Virus record (IMG/VR): IMGVR_UViG_3300021375_000017
Coordinates: 28,002-92,001 of that record
From: a virus
DNA length: 64,000 bases
Reading direction: 5' to 3' (one strand)
Part shown: positions 6,073-60,840 of the stretch, piece by piece
Layout of the letters: every line of letters starts with the position of its first letter
How positions within the stretch are numbered: the stretch's first letter is position 1
Notes under the pieces: model-generated
Told to the model about the DNA's origin: nothing
Database searches by the model: none
Seen by the model: the letters and a program-made list of their open reading frames with translations, nothing else
Made by a program: the position numbers and the translations under genes

Positions 6073-8609
6073 ATTTCTATACAAACATACAGATGATTGG
6101 AAATCAATTCCTTGTTCGTGGTTATGAGGACGGAAAGAGAGTTCACTATCGTGATACCAACTATCGTCCAACTCTGTATGTTAACTCTAAAGTCCCCACA
6201 AAATACAAAACTCTGGAAGGTGAATATGTTGAGGAAATTCAACCTGGAACAGTAAAGGACTGTAGAGACTTTTATAAGAAGTATGATGAGATCGAGAACT
6301 TCAAGATCTATGGTAATGAGAGATATATCTACCAATACATTTCTGACAAGTATCCTCAGGATGAGATAAAGTTTGACATCAAGAAGATGAGACTTTTGAC
6401 TATCGATATTGAGGTCTCATCAGAAGAGGGATTTCCTGACCCAGAACATTGTTCTGAGGAGATGTTGACCATCTCTATTCAGGATTATGCAACTAAGAAA
6501 ATTACAACTTGGGGCAGAAAACCATATACCCCTAGTCAGGACAATGTGACCTATCATTATTATCCTGAAGAAAGAGAAATGCTTGGTGCATTCATTGATT
6601 GGTGGATGAATGACTATCCTGATGTTGTGACTGGGTGGAATACCCGTCTGTACGACATCCCATATATCTGTGGAAGGATCGATAGGGTTCTGGGTGAGAG
6701 GGCCCTTAGGAATCTGTCTCCATGGGGTCTAGCGACCAAGAGAGAGACTTGGATCAATGGCCGTATGTTTTATATCTACGATATTGGTGGTATCACTGAC
6801 CTAGACTATCTGGAGTTGTATAAGAAGTTTACTTATGTGAATCGTGAGTCTTACCGACTGGACTTCATTGCAGAGGTTGAACTTGGTCAAAAGAAATTAG
6901 ACCACTCTGAGTTTGATACATTCAAAGACTTCTATACTGGTGATTGGAAAAAGTTTGTAGATTACAACATCGTTGACGTGGAACTTGTTGACCGTATGGA
7001 AGACAAGATGAAACTGATTGAGTTGGTTATCACCATGGCATACGATGGTAAGGTAAACTTTGGTGACCCAATGTTCCAAGTTAGATTGTGGGACACCATT
7101 ATCTACAACTATTTGAAGAAGAGGAATATTGTTATTCCTCCAAGGATCAATACTGATAAGAGTGAAAAGTTTGCTGGGGCCTATGTAAAGGAACCCAAAC
7201 CAGGTGTATATGATTGGGTTGTAAGTTTTGACTTGAACTCACTTTATCCGCATTTAATTATGCAATACAATATCTCACCTGAGACACTTCAGGAAGAGAA
7301 GCACCCATCAGTTACCATTCAAAAGATTCTTGATGAGAAACTTGATTTTCAGATGTATAAGGACTATGCGGTCTGTGCCAATGGTGCAATGTACCGTAAA
7401 GATGTGAAAGGTTTCCTACCTGAACTGATGGAGAAGATGTATGCTGAACGTAAGGCATTCAAGAAGGAGATGTTGAAGTCTAAACAGAAACTGGTTGACA
7501 TTGAATCAAAACTGAAGACCAATAAGGATCCAGTTCTCCGTAGACAGAGAGAACAAACCATCAAAGATATTGCTAAGTTCAATAACTTTCAGATGGTGAG
7601 AAAGATTTGTTTGAACTCTGCCTACGGTGCAATTGGTAATGCATACTTTAGATATTTCAAACTTGCCAATGCAGAAGCGATTACGATGTCAGGTCAGACA
7701 TCTATTCGTTGGATTGAAAATCATATGAATGAATATCTAAATAACTTACTTTCAACAGAAGATGTAGATTATGTCATCGCATCTGACACCGATTCAATCT
7801 ATCTTAACTTTGGACCTATTGTTGATAAATTTCTTGGTGATAAAGTTAACGATACGAGCAAGGTTGTTTCTATCATTGACAAAGTCTGTCAAGAGAAACT
7901 GGAACCGTTCATCGAAACATCTTATCAAAATCTTGCGACGTATGTAAACGCATACGATCAGAAGATGCAGATGAAACGGGAGAACATTGCAGACCGTGGA
8001 ATTTGGACTGCAAAGAAGAGATACATTCTCAATGTATGGGATAGTGAAGGTGTTAGGTATGAAGATCCTAAACTTAAGATCATGGGTATTGAGGCAGTCA
8101 AGTCATCCACTCCAGCACCCTGTAGGAGTATGATTAAGGATGCTCTCAAACTAATGATGAATGGAACAGAAGATGATGTGATTGAGTATATTGATAAGTG
8201 TAGAAGTGACTTTAAGAAACTTCCCATTGAAGCTATTTCTTTCCCTAGATCTGTTTCTGATGCCCAGAAGTATAAGGCACATGCAACGATCTACTCAAAG
8301 GGAACTCCTATTCATTGTCGTGGTGCCCTATTGTTCAATCACTACATAAAAGAAAAGAAGTTAACAAACAAATATTCACTTATCAATAACGGTGAAAAGA
8401 TTAAATTTTGTTATCTTAAAAAACCAAATATCATCCATGAGAATGTGATCTCATTTATTTCAGAGTTTCCAACAGAGTTGGGACTTGACCAATATGTGGA
8501 TTATGACTTACAATTTGAAAAGGCATTCTTAGAACCTCTCAAGGTCATTCTTGATGCCATTGGATGGAATGTAACTAAGATAAATACTTTAGAAAGTTTT
8601 TTTATGTAA
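6069..8609 (+). CDS. gp43: DNA polymerase (gp43, family B)
   Basis: 846 residues; the replicative polymerase with 3'-5' exonuclease. Exo I is TIDIEV in the N-terminal third. Polymerase motif A is DLNSLYP (about 388-394), motif B is KICLNSAYGAIGN (about 510-522), and motif C is DTDSIYL (about 573-579). It is uninterrupted: no intein or intron is visible. The final codons lie next to a late-promoter-like GATAAATA that serves the following endonuclease gene. Confidence 0.98.
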   Translation: MNFYTNIQMIGNQFLVRGYEDGKRVHYRDTNYRPTLYVNSKVPTKYKTLEGEYVEEIQPGTVKDCRDFYKKYDEIENFKIYGNERYIYQYISDKYPQDEIKFDIKKMRLLTIDIEVSSEEGFPDPEHCSEEMLTISIQDYATKKITTWGRKPYTPSQDNVTYHYYPEEREMLGAFIDWWMNDYPDVVTGWNTRLYDIPYICGRIDRVLGERALRNLSPWGLATKRETWINGRMFYIYDIGGITDLDYLELYKKFTYVNRESYRLDFIAEVELGQKKLDHSEFDTFKDFYTGDWKKFVDYNIVDVELVDRMEDKMKLIELVITMAYDGKVNFGDPMFQVRLWDTIIYNYLKKRNIVIPPRINTDKSEKFAGAYVKEPKPGVYDWVVSFDLNSLYPHLIMQYNISPETLQEEKHPSVTIQKILDEKLDFQMYKDYAVCANGAMYRKDVKGFLPELMEKMYAERKAFKKEMLKSKQKLVDIESKLKTNKDPVLRRQREQTIKDIAKFNNFQMVRKICLNSAYGAIGNAYFRYFKLANAEAITMSGQTSIRWIENHMNEYLNNLLSTEDVDYVIASDTDSIYLNFGPIVDKFLGDKVNDTSKVVSIIDKVCQEKLEPFIETSYQNLATYVNAYDQKMQMKRENIADRGIWTAKKRYILNVWDSEGVRYEDPKLKIMGIEAVKSSTPAPCRSMIKDALKLMMNGTEDDVIEYIDKCRSDFKKLPIEAISFPRSVSDAQKYKAHATIYSKGTPIHCRGALLFNHYIKEKKLTNKYSLINNGEKIKFCYLKKPNIIHENVISFISEFPTELGLDQYVDYDLQFEKAFLEPLKVILDAIGWNVTKINTLESFFM
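8579..8586 (+). promoter_or_regulatory. late-promoter-like GATAAATA inside the gp43 3' end
   Basis: Matches the NATAAATA form of the T4-like late promoter and lies about 30 bases before the GIY-YIG start. An imperfect pairing, TGCCATTGG (8555-8563) with CCATGGGCA (8617-8625), could enclose it and cover the ATG at 8619, but it needs two bulges. Confidence 0.4.
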
Positions 8610-8612
8610 AGT

Positions 8613-9299
8613 ATGACCATGGGCAAATATTATACTTATGCCTATTTGCGTGAAGATGGAACTCCTTATTATATCGGTAAAGGATTAAAAAACAGGAAAT
8701 CTAAAAAGCATTTTAGAAGAAATGGAAAAGTATTTTCTCCTCCATCAGAAGATAAAATAATTATTCTCAAACAGAATTTAACTGAAAAAGAAGCATTTAA
8801 GCACGAAATTTATATGATTTCCGTTTTGGGTAGAAAAGATTTGGGGACTGGTATTTTGAGAAATTTGACTGAAGGTGGTGAAGGGAGTAGTGGATATAAA
8901 CACTCCGATGAATTTAAATCTAAAATTAGAAAAGTTCAGAGTGGTAGAGTTATTTCCAATACAACTAAAGAAAAAATGAGAAATGCAAATCTTGGAAAAG
9001 TTTTATCTGATGAACATAAAAAAAAGATTGGAGAATCGCAAGGGGGGAAAGTTGTAAATGAGGAGGTTAGAAAAAAAATAAGTAATACACTAAAAGGAAA
9101 AAAACATAGTCCAGAAAGAATTAATAATATAAGAAAGGGAATGGGATGTGAAACTTATAAATTCATTTCCCCAGAAGGTAAAATAATTGAAGTTGATAAT
9201 ATGACGCAATTCTGCTATGATAGAAATCTACAGCAAAGTTGTATGTCAAACATCTGGAACAATAAAAGAAACTTTCATAAAGGATGGAAAAAAGCATAA
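8613..9299 (+). CDS. GIY-YIG homing endonuclease (free-standing, NUMOD3 repeats)
   Basis: 228 residues. The N-terminal nuclease domain shows YYTYAYLREDGTPYYIGKG, with the conserved HEIYMISVLGRKDLG and LTEGGEGSSG blocks. The C-terminal half is repeated NUMOD3-like DNA-binding motifs (SDEHKKKIGES, SPERINNIRKG). An alternative start is the ATG at 8619. It sits between gp43 and uvsX as an insertion and ends in a TAATG overlap with uvsX. It is closely similar to the gene at 56873. In T4 relatives (seg genes) such enzymes spread by cutting homologous sites in co-infecting phage DNA; the target here is unknown. Confidence 0.9.
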   Translation: MTMGKYYTYAYLREDGTPYYIGKGLKNRKSKKHFRRNGKVFSPPSEDKIIILKQNLTEKEAFKHEIYMISVLGRKDLGTGILRNLTEGGEGSSGYKHSDEFKSKIRKVQSGRVISNTTKEKMRNANLGKVLSDEHKKKIGESQGGKVVNEEVRKKISNTLKGKKHSPERINNIRKGMGCETYKFISPEGKIIEVDNMTQFCYDRNLQQSCMSNIWNNKRNFHKGWKKA

Positions 9300-10216
9300 T
9301 GGACTTTTTATCAGATATTGTAAAAGAGATTGGAGATGACTTTACCAAACTTGCTGCCGACATCGATGACACTGAGACATATGTGGACACAGGTTCGTTC
9401 GTTCTTAACGCTCTTGTATCTGGGTCTATCCGTGGTGGTGTATCTGGGAATAAAATTACTGCAATTGCTGGCGAAAGTTCTACTGGAAAGACTTTCTTTT
9501 CACTCGCAGTGGTCAAGAACTTCTTGGATACTAATCCCGATGCATATTGCCTTTATTTTGATACTGAGGCAGCAGTTAATAAGTCACTACTAGTAAGTCG
9601 TGGCATTGATCTGAATCGACTAGTTGTTGTTAATGTCGTTACCATTGAGGAGTTTAGGAGTAAGGCTCTCAAGGCGGTAGACATGTATTCAAAAAAACCT
9701 GAAGATGAACGTAAACCTTGTATGTTTGTGTTAGATTCTTTAGGAATGCTTTCTACAGAGAAAGAAATCACTGATGCCCTCAATGAGAAACTTGTCCGTG
9801 ATATGACAAAATCTCAGTTGATTAAAGGGGCTTTCAGAATGTTGACTCTTAAATTGGGTCAAGCCAAAATACCAATGATTGTAACCAATCACACCTATGA
9901 TGTCATCGGAGCTTATGTTCCTACAAAGGAAATGGGTGGGGGTTGTTTAGTTGCGGGAACTAAGATACAAACAGAAAATGGTTCTATTCCTATTGAATCT
10001 ATTCAAGTTGGTGACAAAGTGAGAACTATGTTTGGTTATTCATCAGTTACTGACACTTTCCATTTCACCGATAAAGATGTTTATGAATTGGAATTGGAAG
10101 ATGGAGAAACTATTAGATGTTCTGGCGAACATAAGTTTTTAGTAGATACTGGAGATGGTTATGAATGGAAATCCGTTACTGAGTTATTACCTTCAGATAC
10201 TATCAAATCTATGTGA
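9299..10216 (+). CDS. uvsX: UvsX recombinase N-part fused to N-terminal half of a split intein
   Basis: The first 215 codons are UvsX/RecA (GESSTGKT Walker A at 58-65) and end at TKEMGGG. Cys-1 of an intein follows at 9944: CLVAGTKIQT (block A), then about 90 residues including CSGEHKFLV (block B), then a stop. The rest of intein and UvsX is encoded separately at 10890. The joined extein, GGG then SGLKYAAS, restores the usual UvsX sequence of 336 residues. The start is the ATG at 9299 overlapping the upstream stop. Active recombinase would need trans-splicing. Confidence 0.93.
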   Translation: MDFLSDIVKEIGDDFTKLAADIDDTETYVDTGSFVLNALVSGSIRGGVSGNKITAIAGESSTGKTFFSLAVVKNFLDTNPDAYCLYFDTEAAVNKSLLVSRGIDLNRLVVVNVVTIEEFRSKALKAVDMYSKKPEDERKPCMFVLDSLGMLSTEKEITDALNEKLVRDMTKSQLIKGAFRMLTLKLGQAKIPMIVTNHTYDVIGAYVPTKEMGGGCLVAGTKIQTENGSIPIESIQVGDKVRTMFGYSSVTDTFHFTDKDVYELELEDGETIRCSGEHKFLVDTGDGYEWKSVTELLPSDTIKSM

Positions 10217-10221
10217 AAGTT

Positions 10222-10258
10222 GGTTCTGGACTAAATAATAATAATTGAGTCCAGAACC
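10222..10258 (+). promoter_or_regulatory. perfect inverted repeat enclosing a late-promoter-like TAAATA
   Basis: GGTTCTGGACT (10222-10232) pairs exactly with AGTCCAGAACC (10248-10258). The 15-base loop carries TAAATA repeats starting at 10232. The HNH start codon begins at the next base. Transcripts from upstream would form the hairpin; one starting inside it would lack the 5' arm. Confidence 0.65.
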
Positions 10259-10930
10259 TTGTTTTTATCCAATAAGTATACTGATTGTTATTTCCGTATT
10301 ATTAATAAGGCAAATCTTAGGAAACTTCCTCAAATTACTGAATGTCATCATATTATACCTAAATCATTAGGTGGAGGAGAAGAACCAGAAAACAAAGTAT
10401 ATCTAACACCAAGAGAACATTTTGTCTGTCATCATCTTCTTCTGAAGATGTTAGAGGGAAAATCAAAACAGAAAATGTGTTATGCTTTTTATAGAATGAA
10501 CTCCAGTAATAATGGAGTTAGGTGTGAAAATCTCAATTCTTATGATAGAATAAGAGAACACTACTCTCATCTCACTTCTGGAGTAAATAACCCATTTTAT
10601 GGGAAGGGGCATTTTGGATATTCTAACCCAATGTCCAAACCTGAGGTTCGGGAGAAACATAAACAAATAGTTTCTTCACCTGAACATAGAAAGATGATGA
10701 GTGATAAAATGTCTGGTGAAAATAATCCATTTTACGGAAGAACTCATTCAGATGAAACCAAGAAACATCTTTCTGAGTTGGCGTCTCAGAGAACAGGTGA
10801 AAACTCTTCCCGTTATGGGAAGAAACACAGACGAGTTGTTTGTGAACACTGCCAAAAAGAAATTACTTACCCAATGTATAAGAGGTGGCATGGAACGAAT
10901 TGTAAAGTCTATCAAGAAAATAAAGACTGA
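10259..10930 (+). CDS. HNH homing endonuclease in the uvsX split-intein gap
   Basis: 223 residues if the TTG at 10259 is used, giving a family-like NKYTDCYFRIINKA start. The HNH core is ECHHIIPKSLGGGEEPENK with TPREHFVCHHLL. NUMOD3-like repeats follow (NPFYGRTHSDETKKHLSE), then a C-terminal zinc-binding CEHCQKE...HGTNC. It lies between the two intein half genes in the same direction and overlaps the C-half gene by 41 bases. It probably mobilises the whole interrupted-gene cassette by cutting intein-free uvsX. Confidence 0.88.
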   Translation: MFLSNKYTDCYFRIINKANLRKLPQITECHHIIPKSLGGGEEPENKVYLTPREHFVCHHLLLKMLEGKSKQKMCYAFYRMNSSNNGVRCENLNSYDRIREHYSHLTSGVNNPFYGKGHFGYSNPMSKPEVREKHKQIVSSPEHRKMMSDKMSGENNPFYGRTHSDETKKHLSELASQRTGENSSRYGKKHRRVVCEHCQKEITYPMYKRWHGTNCKVYQENKD

Positions 10931-11366
10931 GGATGTTTATGACATCACAGTTGAAGGAGAACATCATTATATTCTTGGTAATGGTGTCGTGTCTCACAAT
11001 TCTGGCCTTAAGTATGCAGCGTCTACAATCATCTATCTCTCAAAGAAAAAGGAAAAGGATGGAACAGAAGTGGTCGGCAATCTTATCAAGGCTAAGACTG
11101 CTAAGTCGCGTTTAAGTAAAGAGAATAAAGATGTTACTATACGTCTCTATTACGATGAACGTGGTCTTGATAGGTATTACGGTCTCTTAGAACTTGGAGA
11201 ACTTGGTGGACTATGGAAAAACGTTGCAGGACGTTATGAGATGGATGGTAAGAAAGTCTATGCTAAGGCCATCCTGAAAGAACCTGAGACTTATTTTACA
11301 CCTGAAGTGATGGAAAAACTAGATGAAATCGCAAAAGAACAATTCTCTTATGGTTCGTCATTATGA
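10890..11366 (+). CDS. uvsX: C-terminal intein half fused to UvsX C-part
   Basis: Starts at the ATG behind AAGAGG inside the HNH gene. Residues 1-37 are the intein C-half, containing DVYDITVEGEHHYILGNG (block F) and ending VVSHN. Splicing would join at Ser+1 (11001). The remaining 121 residues, from SGLKYAASTIIYLSKKK, are the UvsX C-terminal part. The intein N-half (90 aa) plus this 37 aa gives a normal minimal split intein. Without splicing, UvsX lacks its C-terminal third. Confidence 0.92.
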   Translation: MERIVKSIKKIKTEDVYDITVEGEHHYILGNGVVSHNSGLKYAASTIIYLSKKKEKDGTEVVGNLIKAKTAKSRLSKENKDVTIRLYYDERGLDRYYGLLELGELGGLWKNVAGRYEMDGKKVYAKAILKEPETYFTPEVMEKLDEIAKEQFSYGSSL

Positions 11367-11865
11367 TGTTGTTCCAGAGTCATACTGTAAAAAACTAATT
11401 GAGATATTTGAAAACTCCTCTAATCAGGAGTTTATCAATAATGATCACAAACCATGTTTCAGTCAGGTTAATCTGAGTAAAGAAAATCCTGAAATGGTCA
11501 GACAAATCATTCCCATTATTAAAGGTGTACATACTCTGTATAAGAAGGAAACCAAATCTTATTTTCTTCCAGAGTTAAATGCCCTTGAAGAACTTAGGAT
11601 TAAAAGATACCTTCCTAATGGTGAGGAAAGGTTTGATGAACATGTAGACGTGACTGACTATCCCTCATCAAGAAGGTCAGTTGCATTTTTATTTTATCTG
11701 AATACTAATGATGGTAATACAGTTTTTTCTAAACAGAAGTTGAACATTAAACCAAAGTGTGGTAGGGTAGTAGTATTCCCTCCTACATGGGAATATCCTC
11801 ATGCAAGACTCCCCCCAACAACTAGTAACAAATACATCATGAGTACATATATTCACTATGGATAA
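11350..11865 (+). CDS. 2OG-Fe(II) oxygenase
   Basis: 171 residues with a prolyl-4-hydroxylase-like double-stranded beta-helix. Iron ligands are H98-V-D100 (ERFDEHVDV) and H151 (YPHAR); K161 is a possible 2-oxoglutarate ligand. Such genes are common in cyanomyoviruses; the substrate is not known. The ATG chosen overlaps the uvsX end by 17 bases. It ends with an overlap into gp41. Confidence 0.85.
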   Translation: MVRHYDVVPESYCKKLIEIFENSSNQEFINNDHKPCFSQVNLSKENPEMVRQIIPIIKGVHTLYKKETKSYFLPELNALEELRIKRYLPNGEERFDEHVDVTDYPSSRRSVAFLFYLNTNDGNTVFSKQKLNIKPKCGRVVVFPPTWEYPHARLPPTTSNKYIMSTYIHYG

Positions 11866-12490
11866 GGTTGAATTTTTAGTTCTGAAAAATCTAATACACA
11901 ATGAAAAATACTTGAGAAAGGTTCTTCCATTCATTAAAGAAGAATATTTTGATGATACTAAATATAAGGTAATCTTCGACGAGATCTCTACCTTTACTGC
12001 TGAGTATAACGAACTCCCTACAAAAGAGATTCTCAATATTGAGATTGAAAAGAGAAGAGATATTAATGAGGACTCTTATAAACAGATTTCTCATGTAGTT
12101 AATTGTCTTGAGGACGATGTTGTAGAGTTTGATTGGTTGGTTAACACTACTGAGAAGTGGTGTCGTGACCGTGCCATTTATCTTGCCTTGATTGAATCCA
12201 TTCAGATTGCTGATGGAGGAGATGTCAAGAAGGCACCAGATGCCATTCCATCTATTCTGTCTGATGCTCTGGCAGTTAGTTTTGACAACCATGTAGGACA
12301 TGATTACCTTGAAGATTATGAATCACGATACGAGTCTTATCACAGGAAGGAGGAGAGAATTGAATTCGATCTCGACTATTTTAACAAAATCACGAAAGGT
12401 GGGCTCCCTAACAAAACTCTTAACATCGCACTTGCTGGTTGCGTTCATCCAGAAACTAAAGTTAAAATTAGATTTAAGAAGATTTCTTGA
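11858..12490 (+). CDS. gp41: gp41 replicative helicase N-part with very short intein N-fragment
   Basis: The first 194 residues are the gp41 N-terminal region up to TLNIALAG. An intein Cys follows at 12440 (CVHPETKVKIRF), and translation stops after only 16 intein residues. The rest of the intein and the helicase are encoded from 13177. The break falls inside the Walker A loop: ALAG joined to TGVGKS restores GTGVGKS, so neither half can bind ATP normally before splicing. The last 17 bases overlap the reverse-strand HNH gene. Confidence 0.92.
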   Translation: MDKVEFLVLKNLIHNEKYLRKVLPFIKEEYFDDTKYKVIFDEISTFTAEYNELPTKEILNIEIEKRRDINEDSYKQISHVVNCLEDDVVEFDWLVNTTEKWCRDRAIYLALIESIQIADGGDVKKAPDAIPSILSDALAVSFDNHVGHDYLEDYESRYESYHRKEERIEFDLDYFNKITKGGLPNKTLNIALAGCVHPETKVKIRFKKIS

Positions 12491-13142
12491 TTATGGAATT
12501 TGGTGCTGGTTCTCCAGTTCCAAATTTCCATCCTTCGTTTAATTTAGTATCAATATTTTCTGGTAGTATTCTTTTCCATCCCTTTGTTCCTGGTAAGTAC
12601 ATTACCTTTTTTCCTTTATGTGCTTTACCTCCAAGAGATGCTCTTTGTTGTCTTCCTTGATTAGACGCCCAGTAATTGAATTCTTTAGATGCTCTTTGCT
12701 TTCCTCCAAAAGATGCTCTTTCCTTTCTACCTTCTTCTGTACTCCAGTAATAAAAATTTTTAATGTTATCTTTTAAATATTCTTGTTTTTGAGTTTCCAT
12801 TCCTTTGACCATCCATTCTTTTCTTTCATCTATTGGAACAGAAAAGAAACCAATCTTATTATCTCTACAAAATTCCCCAATTATTTTTCTATATTGTGGA
12901 GATAAGTTTGCTCCTAACATTTTCATAGACCTTAAGTCATTTGGATTTTTGTATATTTTCCATAACAAATAATGTGCTATGATATGTTCTCTAACATTTA
13001 GGTATGTAAGGTTACAATCATCATCTGTTCCTCCCATATGTTTAGGAACAACATGATGTTCGTGTAGTCCTGAATATTTTTTATAATCTTCTTTTCTTGA
13101 CTTATTGCCTTTGCATAAGTTAGAATAGATACGATCAAACAT
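12474..13142 (-). CDS. HNH homing endonuclease, antisense, in the gp41 split-intein gap
   Basis: 222 residues on the reverse strand between the two gp41 pieces. HNH core: HEHHVVPKHMGGTDDD and NVREHIIAHYLLW. The middle holds degenerate repeats (GRKERASFGGK, GRQQRASLGGK) typical of DNA-binding tails of this family, and the end has KGWKRILPENID. It is a family relative of the HNH in uvsX. Opposite orientation means it cannot be read from the gp41 transcript; a reverse-strand TATAAATA lies 22 bases before its start. Confidence 0.88.
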   Translation of the reverse strand: MFDRIYSNLCKGNKSRKEDYKKYSGLHEHHVVPKHMGGTDDDCNLTYLNVREHIIAHYLLWKIYKNPNDLRSMKMLGANLSPQYRKIIGEFCRDNKIGFFSVPIDERKEWMVKGMETQKQEYLKDNIKNFYYWSTEEGRKERASFGGKQRASKEFNYWASNQGRQQRASLGGKAHKGKKVMYLPGTKGWKRILPENIDTKLNEGWKFGTGEPAPNSIIKKSS

Positions 13143-13164
13143 TCCCTGTCCCTGCTACTGCTAT

Positions 13165-13172
13165 TATTTATA
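13165..13172 (-). promoter_or_regulatory. late promoter for the antisense HNH gene
   Basis: The reverse strand reads TATAAATA exactly, 22 bases before the ATG (13142). No enclosing hairpin is visible here, unlike the sense-oriented endonuclease genes. Confidence 0.6.
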
Positions 13173-13176
13173 TAAA

Positions 13177-14352
13177 ATGTGGATTGAAAAAGAAACAACA
13201 ATTGCTGAAATCAAAACATTACTTGATAATGGATATGAAGTAGAAGTTGATTCTCCCGATGGATATGTTCCAGTTAATTTCTTTATTAACAAAGGAATGT
13301 ATGATGAATATGTTTTGAGAATCGATGGCATTGATGAACTTATAAGATGCAATGCCAATCATTTATTTCAGACATCTTTGGGGTGGATGAGTGCATCGCA
13401 TCTTTATAAAAAATATAAAATAATGCATTTTTTAACCGAGAGTGGTTATAAACTTGGTAGTGTATTTAAAACAGGAAATCAAATACCTATTGTTGATATT
13501 AATGTAAATCATCCAAATCACAGGTATTATACTAATGGAGTTTCTTCTCATAATACTGGCGTCGGGAAATCTCTATTCATGTGCCATGTGGCTAGCTCCG
13601 TCTTGCTCCAAGGGAGGAACGTTCTCTACATTACAATGGAGATGGCAGAAGAGCGCATTGCTGAAAGAATTGATGCGAACCTCTTGAATGTAAATATCCA
13701 GGAAATTGTTGACCTTCCAAAACAAATGTTTGAAACAAAGGTTACAAACCTGGCACAAAAGACTCAAGGTCACCTAATTATTAAGGAGTATCCTACTGCC
13801 TCTGCTCATGCTGGACACTTCAAATCACTTCTTAATGAACTTGCACTTAAGAAGTCATTTCGACCTGATATTATTTTCATTGATTACCTTAATATATGTT
13901 CTTCCGAAAGATATCGCGGAAATAGCACTGTCAATTCATATTCATATATTAAAGCAATTGCTGAAGAACTTAGAGGACTTGCTGTTGAAGCAAACGTCCC
14001 TATCATATCTGCCACTCAGACCACTCGTTCTGGTTATGGTAGCTCTGACGTTGAGCTTACTGACACTAGTGAGTCCTTTGGTCTCCCTGCTACTGCTGAT
14101 CTTATGTTTGCCCTTATTTCGACTGAAGAGTTGGAATCGTTGGGACAAATACTTGTAAAGCAATTGAAGAATAGGTATAATGATTACTCTGTCCATAGAC
14201 GTTTTGTTGTTGGTATTGATCGTGCCAAGATGAGATTATATGATTGTGAACAGTCTGCACAGGATGACCTTCTTGACAATGGTAAGGAAGAAGAGTACAA
14301 TAATGATGAACAAGAAAAACCTAAAAAATCATTTAGTGGATTTAAATTTTAA
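13177..14352 (+). CDS. gp41: long intein C-fragment fused to gp41 helicase C-part
   Basis: Residues 1-126 are the larger part of the split intein: CNANHLFQTS is block B and IPIVDINVNHPNHRYY with GVSSHN is the C-terminal block. The extein starts at Thr+1 (13555) with TGVGKS and runs 265 residues through RecA-like helicase motifs (ITMEMAEERIAERIDA; DIIFIDYLN; ISATQTTRSG). N- and C-exteins sum to 459 aa, near T4 gp41 (475 aa). No clear Shine-Dalgarno precedes this ATG. Confidence 0.92.
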   Translation: MWIEKETTIAEIKTLLDNGYEVEVDSPDGYVPVNFFINKGMYDEYVLRIDGIDELIRCNANHLFQTSLGWMSASHLYKKYKIMHFLTESGYKLGSVFKTGNQIPIVDINVNHPNHRYYTNGVSSHNTGVGKSLFMCHVASSVLLQGRNVLYITMEMAEERIAERIDANLLNVNIQEIVDLPKQMFETKVTNLAQKTQGHLIIKEYPTASAHAGHFKSLLNELALKKSFRPDIIFIDYLNICSSERYRGNSTVNSYSYIKAIAEELRGLAVEANVPIISATQTTRSGYGSSDVELTDTSESFGLPATADLMFALISTEELESLGQILVKQLKNRYNDYSVHRRFVVGIDRAKMRLYDCEQSAQDDLLDNGKEEEYNNDEQEKPKKSFSGFKF

Positions 14353-14756
14353 TGACTGTAAATACTGAAGCATATCTTGAATTTGTCAATGCCGTCACCT
14401 CACAACAAAGTAAAGATCACGAAGCATTCCTCTATCGTCTTCAAGAATTGGAAGGCCAAGAGTTTCCTACCGAGCGACTGTTTACTGCTGCTGTAGGAAT
14501 GTCTGCTGAGGCAGGTGAGTTTACTGAAGTTGTCAAGAAGATCGTCTTCCAAGGTAAACCAGTAAATGAAGAAAACTTATTTCATCTGAAACGTGAACTT
14601 GGTGATATTATGTGGTATGTTGCTCAAGCGTGTATGGGTCTTGATACGACCATTGATGAAATTATTGAGATGAATGTTGAGAAACTGAAGTCTCGTTATC
14701 CTGGTGGAGAATTTTCCGTAAAACATTCCGAAGTCCGAAAGGAAGGTGATGTATGA
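14352..14756 (+). CDS. mazG: MazG-like nucleotide pyrophosphohydrolase
   Basis: 134 residues with the all-alpha MazG fold pattern: SAEAGEFTEVVKKIVFQ followed by KRELGDIMWYVAQACMGL, supplying the Glu/Asp metal ligands. Cyanophage MazG is proposed to hydrolyse NTPs or dNTPs; early suggestions of ppGpp hydrolysis are disputed. Start overlaps the gp41 stop by one base and the stop overlaps the next gene by ATGA. Confidence 0.9.
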   Translation: MTVNTEAYLEFVNAVTSQQSKDHEAFLYRLQELEGQEFPTERLFTAAVGMSAEAGEFTEVVKKIVFQGKPVNEENLFHLKRELGDIMWYVAQACMGLDTTIDEIIEMNVEKLKSRYPGGEFSVKHSEVRKEGDV

Positions 14757-54049: not shown

Positions 54050-54213
54050 AGTCGAGAGGTTACGGAATCAACACATTCCTTTACTGTTCGTAACACTCCT
54101 CAAACCGAGACCTATAGGGTGTATAAATCACGTCTCTCATATCCCCGGCTGAGGGTGCTGGGGAAATAGTAACTCCACCATTCCCTGATGGTCTTACTTT
54201 TTTGTTCAAAACA

Positions 54214-55290
54214 ATGGCTACAACTCTTTCAAGACAACAAACATCCCCATGGCAGAATTTCTGTGAGTGGGTAACTTCAACAAACAATCGTCTTTATGTC
54301 GGCTGGTTCGGTGTGCTCATGCTCCCGACACTGCTTGCAGCAACAATCTGCTTCATCGTTGCCTTCATCGCTGCTCCGCCTGTTGACATAGACGGCATCC
54401 GTGAACCCGTTGCTGGTTCACTCATGTATGGTAACAACATCATCTCTGGTGCAGTTGTTCCTAGTTCAAACGCAATTGGTCTTCACTTCTACCCCATTTG
54501 GGAAGCAGCATCTTTGGATGAATGGCTTTACAATGGTGGTCCTTTCCAACTGGTAGTCTTCCACTTCCTTATCGGCATCTATGCATATATGGGACGTGAG
54601 TGGGAACTTTCCTACCGCTTGGGCATGAGGCCCTGGATCTGTGTAGCATACTCTGCTCCAGTAGCAGCAGCATCTGCTGTATTCCTCGTCTACCCCTTCG
54701 GTCAAGGTTCATTCTCCGACGCTATGCCACTTGGCATCTCTGGTACGTTCAACTACATGTTGGTCTTCCAATCAGAGCACAACATCCTGATGCATCCCTT
54801 CCATATGGCGGGTGTAGCAGGTGTCTTCGGTGGTTCACTGTTCTCCGCCATGCACGGCTCACTGGTGACCTCTTCCTTGGTTCGTGAAACAACCGAGACC
54901 GAGTCACAGAACTATGGTTACAAGTTTGGTCAAGAAGAAGAGACCTATAACATCGTCGCAGCCCATGGTTACTTCGGTCGTTTGATCTTCCAATACGCAT
55001 CATTCAACAACTCCCGTTCCTTGCACTTCTTCCTTGCTGCATGGCCTGTTGTTGGCATCTGGTTCACCGCTCTTGGTGTTTCTACGATGGCTTTTAATCT
55101 CAACGGTCTGAATTTTAATCAGAGCATTCTGGATAGTCAGAACCGTGTTGTTAATACCTGGGCCGACGTGTTGAACCGTGCCGGTCTTGGTTTAGAAGTG
55201 ATGCACGAAAGAAATGCTCATAATTTCCCACTTGACCTCGCCGCAGCAGAAAGTACTCCTGTAGCACTTACTGCTCCTACTGTTGGTTGA
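54214..55290 (+). CDS. psbA: photosystem II D1 protein
   Basis: 358 residues from the ATG at 54214 ([15 protein letters not shown]); the upstream TTG is rejected. Five transmembrane helices; [19 protein letters not shown] holds the P680 ligand His; the C-terminal [14 protein letters not shown] retains the Mn-cluster His/Glu/Asp set. A 15-residue extension, [15 protein letters not shown], follows the predicted CtpA cleavage site after LDLA. It replaces photodamaged host D1 during infection. No intron is present. Confidence 0.98.
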
Positions 55291-60144: not shown

Positions 60145-60514
60145 TTTCAAATCCCGACATGATTGGGAAGCATTTACATCAATGTTTGATGCACGTTGGC
60201 ATTGTAAGAAAGCATTGCTAGATCGTGTCAAAGATGATCTCTATCCCAAATATAGATGGGAAGAACTCAATGCAGGAACACTTGAAGTGATCAATGACAT
60301 CACACAATCTCTGTTGTATGATGTAGAGCACACATTCAAAGAAGAGCATCCAGAGTATAAGACTGAGGATGATGAATGTTTTATCCCTCGTTCTTCATTC
60401 AAGGAGAATGTAACAGAAGCTCTTCTGGAAGCAAACCAGAAGTTCTGGAACTCTGCTAACGAATGCCCTCCATGTGACACTCTGCATGTAAAGAATGTGA
60501 TAAAGCAAGAGTGA
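60131..60514 (+). CDS. hypothetical protein, 127 aa, C-terminus altered by HNH insertion
   Basis: Start at MTIPNFKSRHDWEAFTSMF. Helical, with NDITQSLLYDVEHTFKEEH. The last ~15 codons (from about 60470) read across bases that, in another frame, encode ACKECDKARVKARH, part of the HNH protein, so the natural end was probably replaced when the HNH sequence arrived. Its stop overlaps the HNH GTG start (GTGA). Confidence 0.5.
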   Translation: MTIPNFKSRHDWEAFTSMFDARWHCKKALLDRVKDDLYPKYRWEELNAGTLEVINDITQSLLYDVEHTFKEEHPEYKTEDDECFIPRSSFKENVTEALLEANQKFWNSANECPPCDTLHVKNVIKQE

Positions 60515-60840
60515 AGGCAAGACATCAAGCAAACCCAGAACGCACAAGAAATAATGATCTGAAAAGAAACTATGGTATAACTCTTGAAGAACATACAAAA
60601 ATGTATGAAGAACAAAATGGACGATGTGCTATTTGTGGTAATGAAGGTAATGGTAAGTGGAAAAAGTTATGTGTAGACCATTGTCACACCACTGGTAAGA
60701 TTAGAAAACTACTCTGCAACAACTGTAACACCGCACTGGGGCTGGTAGGAGACAATGTAGATACCCTTCAGAAGATGATTGAGTATCTTGCTGCTGCTGA
60801 GTCTACACCTGTAGCACTCGTAGCACCATCTGTAGGATGA
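60511..60840 (+). CDS. HNH endonuclease (endonuclease VII-like) ending in a D1 C-terminal peptide
   Basis: 109 residues from a GTG start. NYGITLEEHTKMYEEQNGRC, CAICGNEGNGKWKKLCVDHC, HTTGKIRKLLCNNCNTALGL is the endonuclease VII-like HNH core with zinc Cys. The frame is open back to 60478, encoding an extra CKEC half of a zinc finger, so the N-terminus is truncated. The last 17 residues, [17 protein letters not shown], match the D1 C-terminus from psbA at 15 of 17 positions. Either a psbA-homing relic or a functional tail. Confidence 0.85.
   Translation: MKARHQANPERTRNNDLKRNYGITLEEHTKMYEEQNGRCAICGNEGNGKWKKLCVDHCHTTGKIRKLLCNNCNTALGLVGDNVDTLQKMIEYLAAAESTPVALVAPSVG

What the first reader, a model, noticed from the sequence alone, without database searches (positions are those of the whole stretch)
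9299..11366. UvsX recombinase interrupted by a second, conventional split intein
UvsX ends at GGG followed by a 90-residue intein N-half and stop; a 37-residue C-half at 10890 ends VVSHN before Ser+1 and the UvsX C-part. So two consecutive core replication/recombination enzymes are each made as two polypeptides, with different split sites (after residue 90 versus after residue 16). This fits the 'fractured gene' arrangement described from marine metagenomes, but two in one replication segment is striking.
Basis: partly seen in the sequence, partly recalled or inferred. Interest (0 to 1): 0.82.

Follow-up and report, generated by a model that had tools for sequence, protein, structure and literature searches.

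The report
UvsX recombinase gene fractured by mobile intein
A marine cyanophage-like virus makes its DNA-recombination enzyme UvsX as two proteins that almost certainly stitch themselves together, because a selfish "homing" gene sits inside the self-splicing element that interrupts uvsX; this arrangement is a known kind, but relatives show the broken element jumping whole between phages and, once, recently healing back into one piece.

Summary
uvsX is broken after ...KEMGGG by a 90-residue intein N-half (9944-10216). A 37-residue C-half with its own ribosome site and ATG (10890-11000) precedes Ser+1 and the rest of UvsX. Between them lies an intact HNH/NUMOD3 homing-endonuclease gene (10259-10930), which the finding did not mention. 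Joining the two UvsX parts aligns without internal gaps to intact S-SM2 UvsX. This is a "fractured gene" as described from metagenomes in 2009.

Relatives add more. 23 of 25 IMG/VR contigs with this N-half are broken at the same place. Both halves and the endonuclease are under purifying selection. The whole cassette is 1,088/1,089 nt identical between phages whose flanking uvsX is only about 80% identical, so it moves as a unit. Two contigs differ from the window cassette by one clean 661-bp deletion that removes the endonuclease and fuses the halves into a contiguous mini-intein. They nest inside the fractured clade, so fracture is reversible. The same site is fractured in about 20 cultured T4-like phages, by GIY-YIG-type endonucleases. 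gp41 next door shows comparable states.

Splicing and homing were not measured. New member of a known kind; the refusion is the unusual part.

The parts
9299..9943 (+). UvsX N-extein, 215 aa, ends ...YVPTKEMGGG
   Evidence: Pfam RecA E 1.2e-9; 88% identical to S-SM2 UvsX residues 1-216
9944..10216 (+). Intein N-half, 90 aa plus TGA stop; Cys1, block B S60-G-E-H63
   Evidence: TIGR01445 above cut-off; dN/dS 0.03-0.25 against 10 relatives
10222..10258 (+). RNA hairpin (stem 10222-10232/10248-10258) ending directly at the HNH start codon; loop holds late-promoter-like CTAAATA
   Evidence: MFE z -4.4; loop TAAATA and most of the 3' arm invariant in 15 loci; 5' arm decayed in some
10259..10930 (+). 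Free-standing HNH/NUMOD3 homing-endonuclease-like ORF, TTG start (ATG at the same place in the L016-L026 group), 223 aa
   Evidence: NUMOD3 E 5.5e-15, HNH only 16.5 bits against a 21.4 cut-off; intact 222-224 aa in the window and 10 relatives, dN/dS 0.09-0.20
10880..10885 (+). Ribosome-binding site (AAGAGG) of the C-half gene
   Evidence: AAGAGGTGGCATG (AGGAGG in L022) conserved upstream of the IntC ATG in all loci that reach it; kept as coding sequence in contiguous L008
10890..11000 (+). Intein C-half, 37 aa, ends HN before Ser+1; overlaps the HNH 3' end by 41 nt
   Evidence: TIGR01443 E 2.4e-9; dN/dS 0-0.13
11001..11366 (+). UvsX C-extein, 121 aa plus stop
   Evidence: 87% identical to S-SM2 UvsX residues 210-334
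8613..9299 (+). Separate GIY-YIG-like NUMOD3 ORF just upstream of uvsX (neighbour, not part of the intein)
   Evidence: NUMOD3 match; full-length only in L002 and L004, which are identical to the window
11858..12490 (+). Neighbouring fractured gp41: N-extein plus 16-aa intein N-half
12474..13142 (-). Antisense HNH-like ORF in the gp41 break
   Evidence: no Pfam match; 35-100% identical relatives at the same break
13177..14352 (+). gp41 intein C-half (126 aa) plus gp41 C-extein
   Evidence: DnaB_C E 9.6e-17

Best explanation
uvsX carries a class-1 split intein whose two halves are translated as separate proteins, UvsX(1-215)-IntN and IntC-UvsX(216-336). They should associate and trans-splice, with Cys1 as first nucleophile, Ser+1 as acceptor and terminal Asn cyclising, to give full-length UvsX. 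The gene is split because a free-standing homing endonuclease gene occupies the intein's usual endonuclease-insertion point. The endonuclease presumably cuts uvsX alleles that lack the cassette, so that repair copies IntN-HNH-IntC as one unit. Loss of the endonuclease can leave a split intein (allele 2, L207/L208) or, if the deletion is in frame and removes the stop, a contiguous mini-intein (L008/L009). Shown: anatomy, conservation, selection, horizontal transfer of the cassette, and the contiguous derivative. Inferred: splicing, endonuclease cutting, timing of expression.
For: Both halves match curated intein models above cut-off, and the contiguous form reaches Pfam Intein_splicing E 7.6e-15. 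Catalytic residues are invariant in the aligned family. Joined exteins align without internal gaps to S-SM2 UvsX. 23 of 25 contigs are broken at the same place. Purifying selection acts on IntN, HNH and IntC. 9917-11005 differs at 1 of 1,089 sites from L003/L005 while flanking uvsX is 79-81% identical. L008/L009, from two metagenomes, equal the window IntN and IntC minus a clean 661-bp deletion of 10213-10873 that restores the frame, and nest in a supported clade of 12 fractured rows. The AF2 model of L008 (pLDDT 84.6) matches the gp41-1 intein, Foldseek E 5.3e-10, TM 0.90 by target. The same site is fractured with GIY-YIG-type endonucleases in cultured T4-like phages.
Against: No splicing or endonuclease activity was measured. 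The HNH domain itself is below Pfam's cut-off, and its target is unknown. A hairpin directly before the HNH ORF may limit read-through to the essential C-half. The direction split-to-contiguous rests on phylogenetic nesting and on the preserved ribosome site and ATG, not on observed ancestors. Interior branch order within the clade is poorly resolved.
Confidence: 0.93

Rival explanations
1. The two UvsX parts work as a non-covalent complex and the intein halves are passive tails, like genes-in-pieces NrdA of phage Aeh1, where an endonuclease gene splits an enzyme and the pieces assemble.
For: Such pieces-without-splicing cases exist in T4-like phages (PMC2988022).
Against: Intein catalytic residues and both halves are kept under strong purifying selection. 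The contiguous L008/L009 form would leave a 132-residue insert in UvsX unless it splices.
Confidence: 0.03
2. The break is mended at the RNA level (group I intron) or by recoding, not by protein splicing.
For: The HNH ORF and IntN share a reading frame, and intron-borne HNH genes are common in phages.
Against: No Rfam match in 8500-14500 even at E up to 1. Stops separate the ORFs. IntC has its own ribosome site and ATG, and intein motifs sit exactly at the extein junctions.
Confidence: 0.02
3. Assembly or sequencing artefact, or a decaying pseudogene.
For: The record is a single metagenomic fragment.
Against: Many contigs from many metagenomes and cultured phage genomes show it; HNH ORFs are intact in the window and 10 relatives; selection is purifying.
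Confidence: 0.01
4. For the evolutionary part only: contiguous L008/L009 is the older state and the HNH gene inserted recently into it.
For: Contiguous forms exist elsewhere in the family (L237/L238, L268, SCTP-2), and an endonuclease invading a contiguous intein is the usual model in the literature (PMC11766414).
Against: The HNH is at the identical site in divergent relatives (IntN 71-79%, HNH 72-94% identical), so it predates the L008/window split. L008 keeps the C-half's ribosome site and ATG inside its linker, is otherwise window-identical, and nests in the fractured clade.
Confidence: 0.12

Closest known systems
Fractured genes with split inteins from marine metagenomes (Dassa et al. 2009, 10.1093/nar/gkp095; paper not held here, known through citing papers)
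   Same: Conserved enzyme gene split by intein halves with a free-standing endonuclease gene between them
   Different: Here in cyanophage-like uvsX with an HNH/NUMOD3 gene; whether uvsX was among the 2009 loci could not be checked. Cassette-scale transfer and a contiguous derivative are shown here.
gp41-1 split intein (PDB 6qaz, cyanophage-like)
   Same: Conventional split point, class-1 chemistry; closest solved structure by sequence (E 6e-13) and fold
   Different: About 30% identity, different host gene
AceL NrdHF fractured gene (PMC7891396)
   Same: Fractured phage-like gene with a 98/48-residue split intein and an intervening endonuclease gene
   Different: Class 3 (no N-terminal nucleophile), GIY-YIG endonuclease
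Fractured uvsX in cultured T4-like phages (Escherichia ELT1 and SYGD1, Proteus Pm5461, Shewanella Thanatos-1, Salmonella SEA1, Vibrio EniLVp02)
   Same: Same extein site (TGG/GGG before Cys1), N-half, endonuclease gene, then a C-half with its own ATG
   Different: GIY-YIG-type endonucleases, Thr+1, intein about 40% identical; annotated as two recombination proteins or uvsX_1/uvsX_2
VidaL-type atypical split inteins (PDB 6vgv)
   Same: gp41 next door also has a very short N-half (16 aa)
   Different: The uvsX intein itself is conventionally split; VidaL is only a lower-ranked fold match, and the resemblance of the gp41 split is recalled, not tested

Membership tests
Fractured gene (Dassa 2009) | Conserved enzyme coding region interrupted by two intein halves at the extein junction | tested here: met
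   Joined exteins align without internal gaps to S-SM2 UvsX; intein models at both halves
Fractured gene (Dassa 2009) | Free-standing endonuclease gene between the halves | tested here: met
   Intact NUMOD3/HNH-like ORF 10259-10930 in the window and 10 relatives
Fractured gene (Dassa 2009) | Halves trans-splice | not testable with these tools
   Needs co-expression; supported only by conserved residues and selection
Class 1 intein | Cys1, block B His, penultimate His, terminal Asn, Cys/Ser/Thr+1 | tested here: met
   C1, H63, HN ends and Ser+1 all invariant; the block B Thr is Ser60 here
Conventional split intein | Break at the canonical endonuclease insertion point | tested here: met
   90/37 split; the AF2 model of contiguous L008 is an intein fold with the join at a lower-confidence stretch (block pLDDT 71) between two strands
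HNH homing endonuclease | HNH catalytic motif | tested here: inconclusive
   CHHIIPKSLGG...EPENKV...REHFVCHHL looks like HNH, but Pfam HNH is 16.5 bits against a 21.4 cut-off; NUMOD3 well above its cut-off
HNH homing endonuclease | Cuts cassette-free alleles and promotes its own transfer | tested here: inconclusive
   Transfer footprint seen; cutting not tested

The most novel reading that the evidence does not exclude
Fracture of this intein is reversible and endonuclease-linked: a mobile IntN-HNH-IntC cassette recently lost its endonuclease by one in-frame deletion and became a contiguous mini-intein in L008/L009, while relatives show every intermediate (empty, fractured with HNH, fractured with GIY-YIG, split without endonuclease, contiguous). 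Split inteins in T4-like phages would then be one phase of a homing cycle, not an endpoint.
Probability: 0.8. Interest if true: 0.65.

Novelty: new member of a known kind. Interest (0 to 1): 0.52.

Why it matters
It explains why core phage replication genes come in pieces, and gives a family in which the empty, fractured, HEG-less split and contiguous states of one intein can be compared, including a split/contiguous pair almost identical in sequence. That pair would let the cost of splitting be measured directly. Fractured uvsX also occurs in cultured phages listed with E. coli K-12 as host, so the question is testable at the bench. The halves are candidates for new split-intein tools.

Tried and rejected
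Group I intron or known RNA element: no Rfam match. Second uvsX copy: none in this record, nor in nine related records, which hold one UvsX set each. Intrinsic terminator before the HNH gene: the pattern scan did not call the hairpin and terminators were at chance level; the T-run is missing in the L016-L026 group, so terminator function is not claimed. Hairpin as a strictly conserved structure: its 5' arm is decayed in L016, L022 and L024. The IntC-plus-extein search was flooded by intein-free uvsX, so halves were searched separately. The exact deletion junction was found only in the two known contigs. L207/L208 first looked contiguous but is split without an endonuclease. L002 and L004 are identical to the window and are not counted as independent. 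Phages collection: no cultured marine cyanophage among the listed IntN hits. The Dassa 2009 paper is not held, and no held paper combines uvsX with 'split intein'. HNH ORF against PDB: nothing useful.

Full report
What is there. The window is bases 28,002-92,001 of a 92-kb IMG/VR virus record with T4-like replication genes and a psbA-like gene. uvsX starts at 9299 and runs to ...KEMGGG at 9943. A 90-residue intein N-half (CLVAGTKIQT...PSDTIKSM, TGA) follows to 10216. After a 42-nt spacer an HNH/NUMOD3-type ORF starts with TTG at 10259 and ends at 10930. The intein C-half starts at ATG 10890, inside the last codons of that ORF, behind AAGAGGTGGC, and ends ...GVVSHN at 11000, followed by SGLKYAAS... 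to 11366. Joining the UvsX parts gives 336 aa that align without internal gaps to the 334-aa intact UvsX of Synechococcus phage S-SM2, 300 identical. No other UvsX is in the record.

Is it an intein? TIGR01445 (27.0 vs 24.5 bits) and TIGR01443 (37.1 vs 15.6 bits) match the halves above cut-off. Pfam Intein_splicing matches each half below its cut-off, and the contiguous relative well above it (55.5 vs 35.8 bits). Cys1, the block B His, the final His-Asn and Ser+1 are invariant across the family. The block B Thr is Ser here. A model of the contiguous relative L008 (pLDDT 84.6) has an intein fold; its best match is the gp41-1 intein (Foldseek E 5.3e-10, TM 0.90 by target), which also leads the sequence search of the PDB.

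The relatives. IMG/VR holds 25 contigs with an N-half 71-100% identical. Two of these (L002, L004) are identical to the window. In 23 the N-half ends in a stop at about the same place and an HNH ORF follows; the C-half with its own ATG is present wherever the contig reaches it. In the window and ten relatives the HNH ORF is intact, 222-224 aa. Its start is TTG in the window's group and ATG at the same place in the L016-L026 group. dN/dS against the window is 0.03-0.25 for IntN, 0-0.13 for IntC and 0.09-0.20 for the HNH. So all three parts look functional.

It moves. Between the window and L003/L005, positions 9917-11005 differ at one site in 1,089, while uvsX on both sides is 79-81% identical. 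The whole cassette has been transferred recently between diverged phages, with almost no flanking DNA still shared. The intein and extein trees also differ.

It can heal. L008 and L009 (two metagenomes, 7 differences in 10 kb) have IntN and IntC identical to the window at the DNA level up to the junction, but bases 10213-10873 are missing, and the reading frame runs through ...IKSI-CIRGG-MERIVKS... to the end of UvsX. The ribosome site and ATG of the C-half survive as coding sequence in the linker. L008 lies within a supported clade (95/95) of 12 fractured rows, and the HNH is at the same place in much more diverged members, so deletion is the better-supported direction. The same UvsX also carries a second split intein ten residues upstream with an antisense HNH-like ORF. 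More distant contiguous forms at the same site are L237/L238, L268 and Salicola phage SCTP-2. A second cyanophage allele is fractured with its own HNH (L171, L201-L206), and L207/L208 of that allele is split with no endonuclease.

It is not confined to cyanophage-like contigs. Twenty-five records (about 20 phages, because several are GenBank/RefSeq pairs) of cultured T4-like phages carry a related N-half. In the ten inspected, uvsX is split at the homologous site, with a GIY-YIG-type or related endonuclease gene between the halves and a C-half that starts MK(I/L/V)K... and ends HN before Thr+1. They are annotated as two recombination proteins or uvsX_1/uvsX_2, and one C-half as a portal protein. 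Different endonuclease types have therefore occupied the same break.

gp41. The neighbouring helicase gene has its own intein, broken after residue 16, with an antisense HNH-like gene in the break. Among 79 loci it is mostly fractured, but contiguous in six (L123-L127, L129) and split with no long HNH match in the break in L159, L160, L164 and L179; L159 keeps a short tail of the endonuclease region. Both genes are fractured in L006, L012 and L018-L020 as well as in the window. Two fractures in one segment are thus recurrent.

Expression, inferred. A hairpin (z -4.4) ends exactly at the HNH start codon, with CTAAATA in its loop. Across 15 loci the loop and most of the 3' arm are invariant, while the 5' arm is lost in some. 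Five of six endonuclease ORFs in the window have TAAATA 27-32 nt upstream, against 9 of 65 other genes with it within 60 nt (Fisher p 0.0008, hand-picked gene list). This resembles the late-promoter and hairpin control of T4 homing endonucleases (PMC2988022), but is not shown to act so.

Verdict. The arrangement belongs to the fractured genes known since 2009 (cited in PMC7090010, PMC7891396 and PMC11766414); the original paper was not available. Trans-splicing is very likely but untested. The contiguous derivative and the cassette-scale transfer are the parts that go beyond a routine new member.

Noticed in passing
window 12440-13554; L123-L127, L129, L159, L160, L164, L179: The gp41 intein interconverts between fractured with an antisense endonuclease, split with none, and contiguous; in L159/L160 the C-half start codon appears to come from leftover endonuclease-region sequence.
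   Followed up: partly
window 60511-60840 and 54202-55290: A small HNH-like ORF ends in a psbA-like C-terminal tail ([16 protein letters not shown]) about 5.5 kb from the psbA-like gene; the tails are only 34/50 identical in DNA, suggesting another psbA allele as source.
   Followed up: partly
window upstream of 8613, 10259, 13142(-), 30064, 56873: Late-promoter-like TAAATA 27-32 nt upstream of five of six endonuclease ORFs.
   Followed up: partly
L003 6689-6968 and L005 7145-7424: A GIY-YIG remnant followed by a second copy of the UvsX C-terminus (residues 65-118 of the C-part, 76% identical) just before gp41, a possible footprint of endonuclease-driven transfer.
   Followed up: no
L008 3926-4967: A second, different split intein in the same uvsX, ten extein residues upstream of the contiguous one, with an antisense HNH-like ORF.
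   Followed up: partly
L013-L015 IntN to IntC: Mosaic cassettes: IntN 77% but HNH and IntC 93-98% identical to the window, implying a recombination point near the end of IntN.
   Followed up: no
L041 1790-2900: A distant fractured uvsX whose break holds a 356-codon open frame of unrecognised type.
   Followed up: no
L206 1854-2732; L199 (SCTP-2): A further intein in uvsX at the Walker A region.
   Followed up: no
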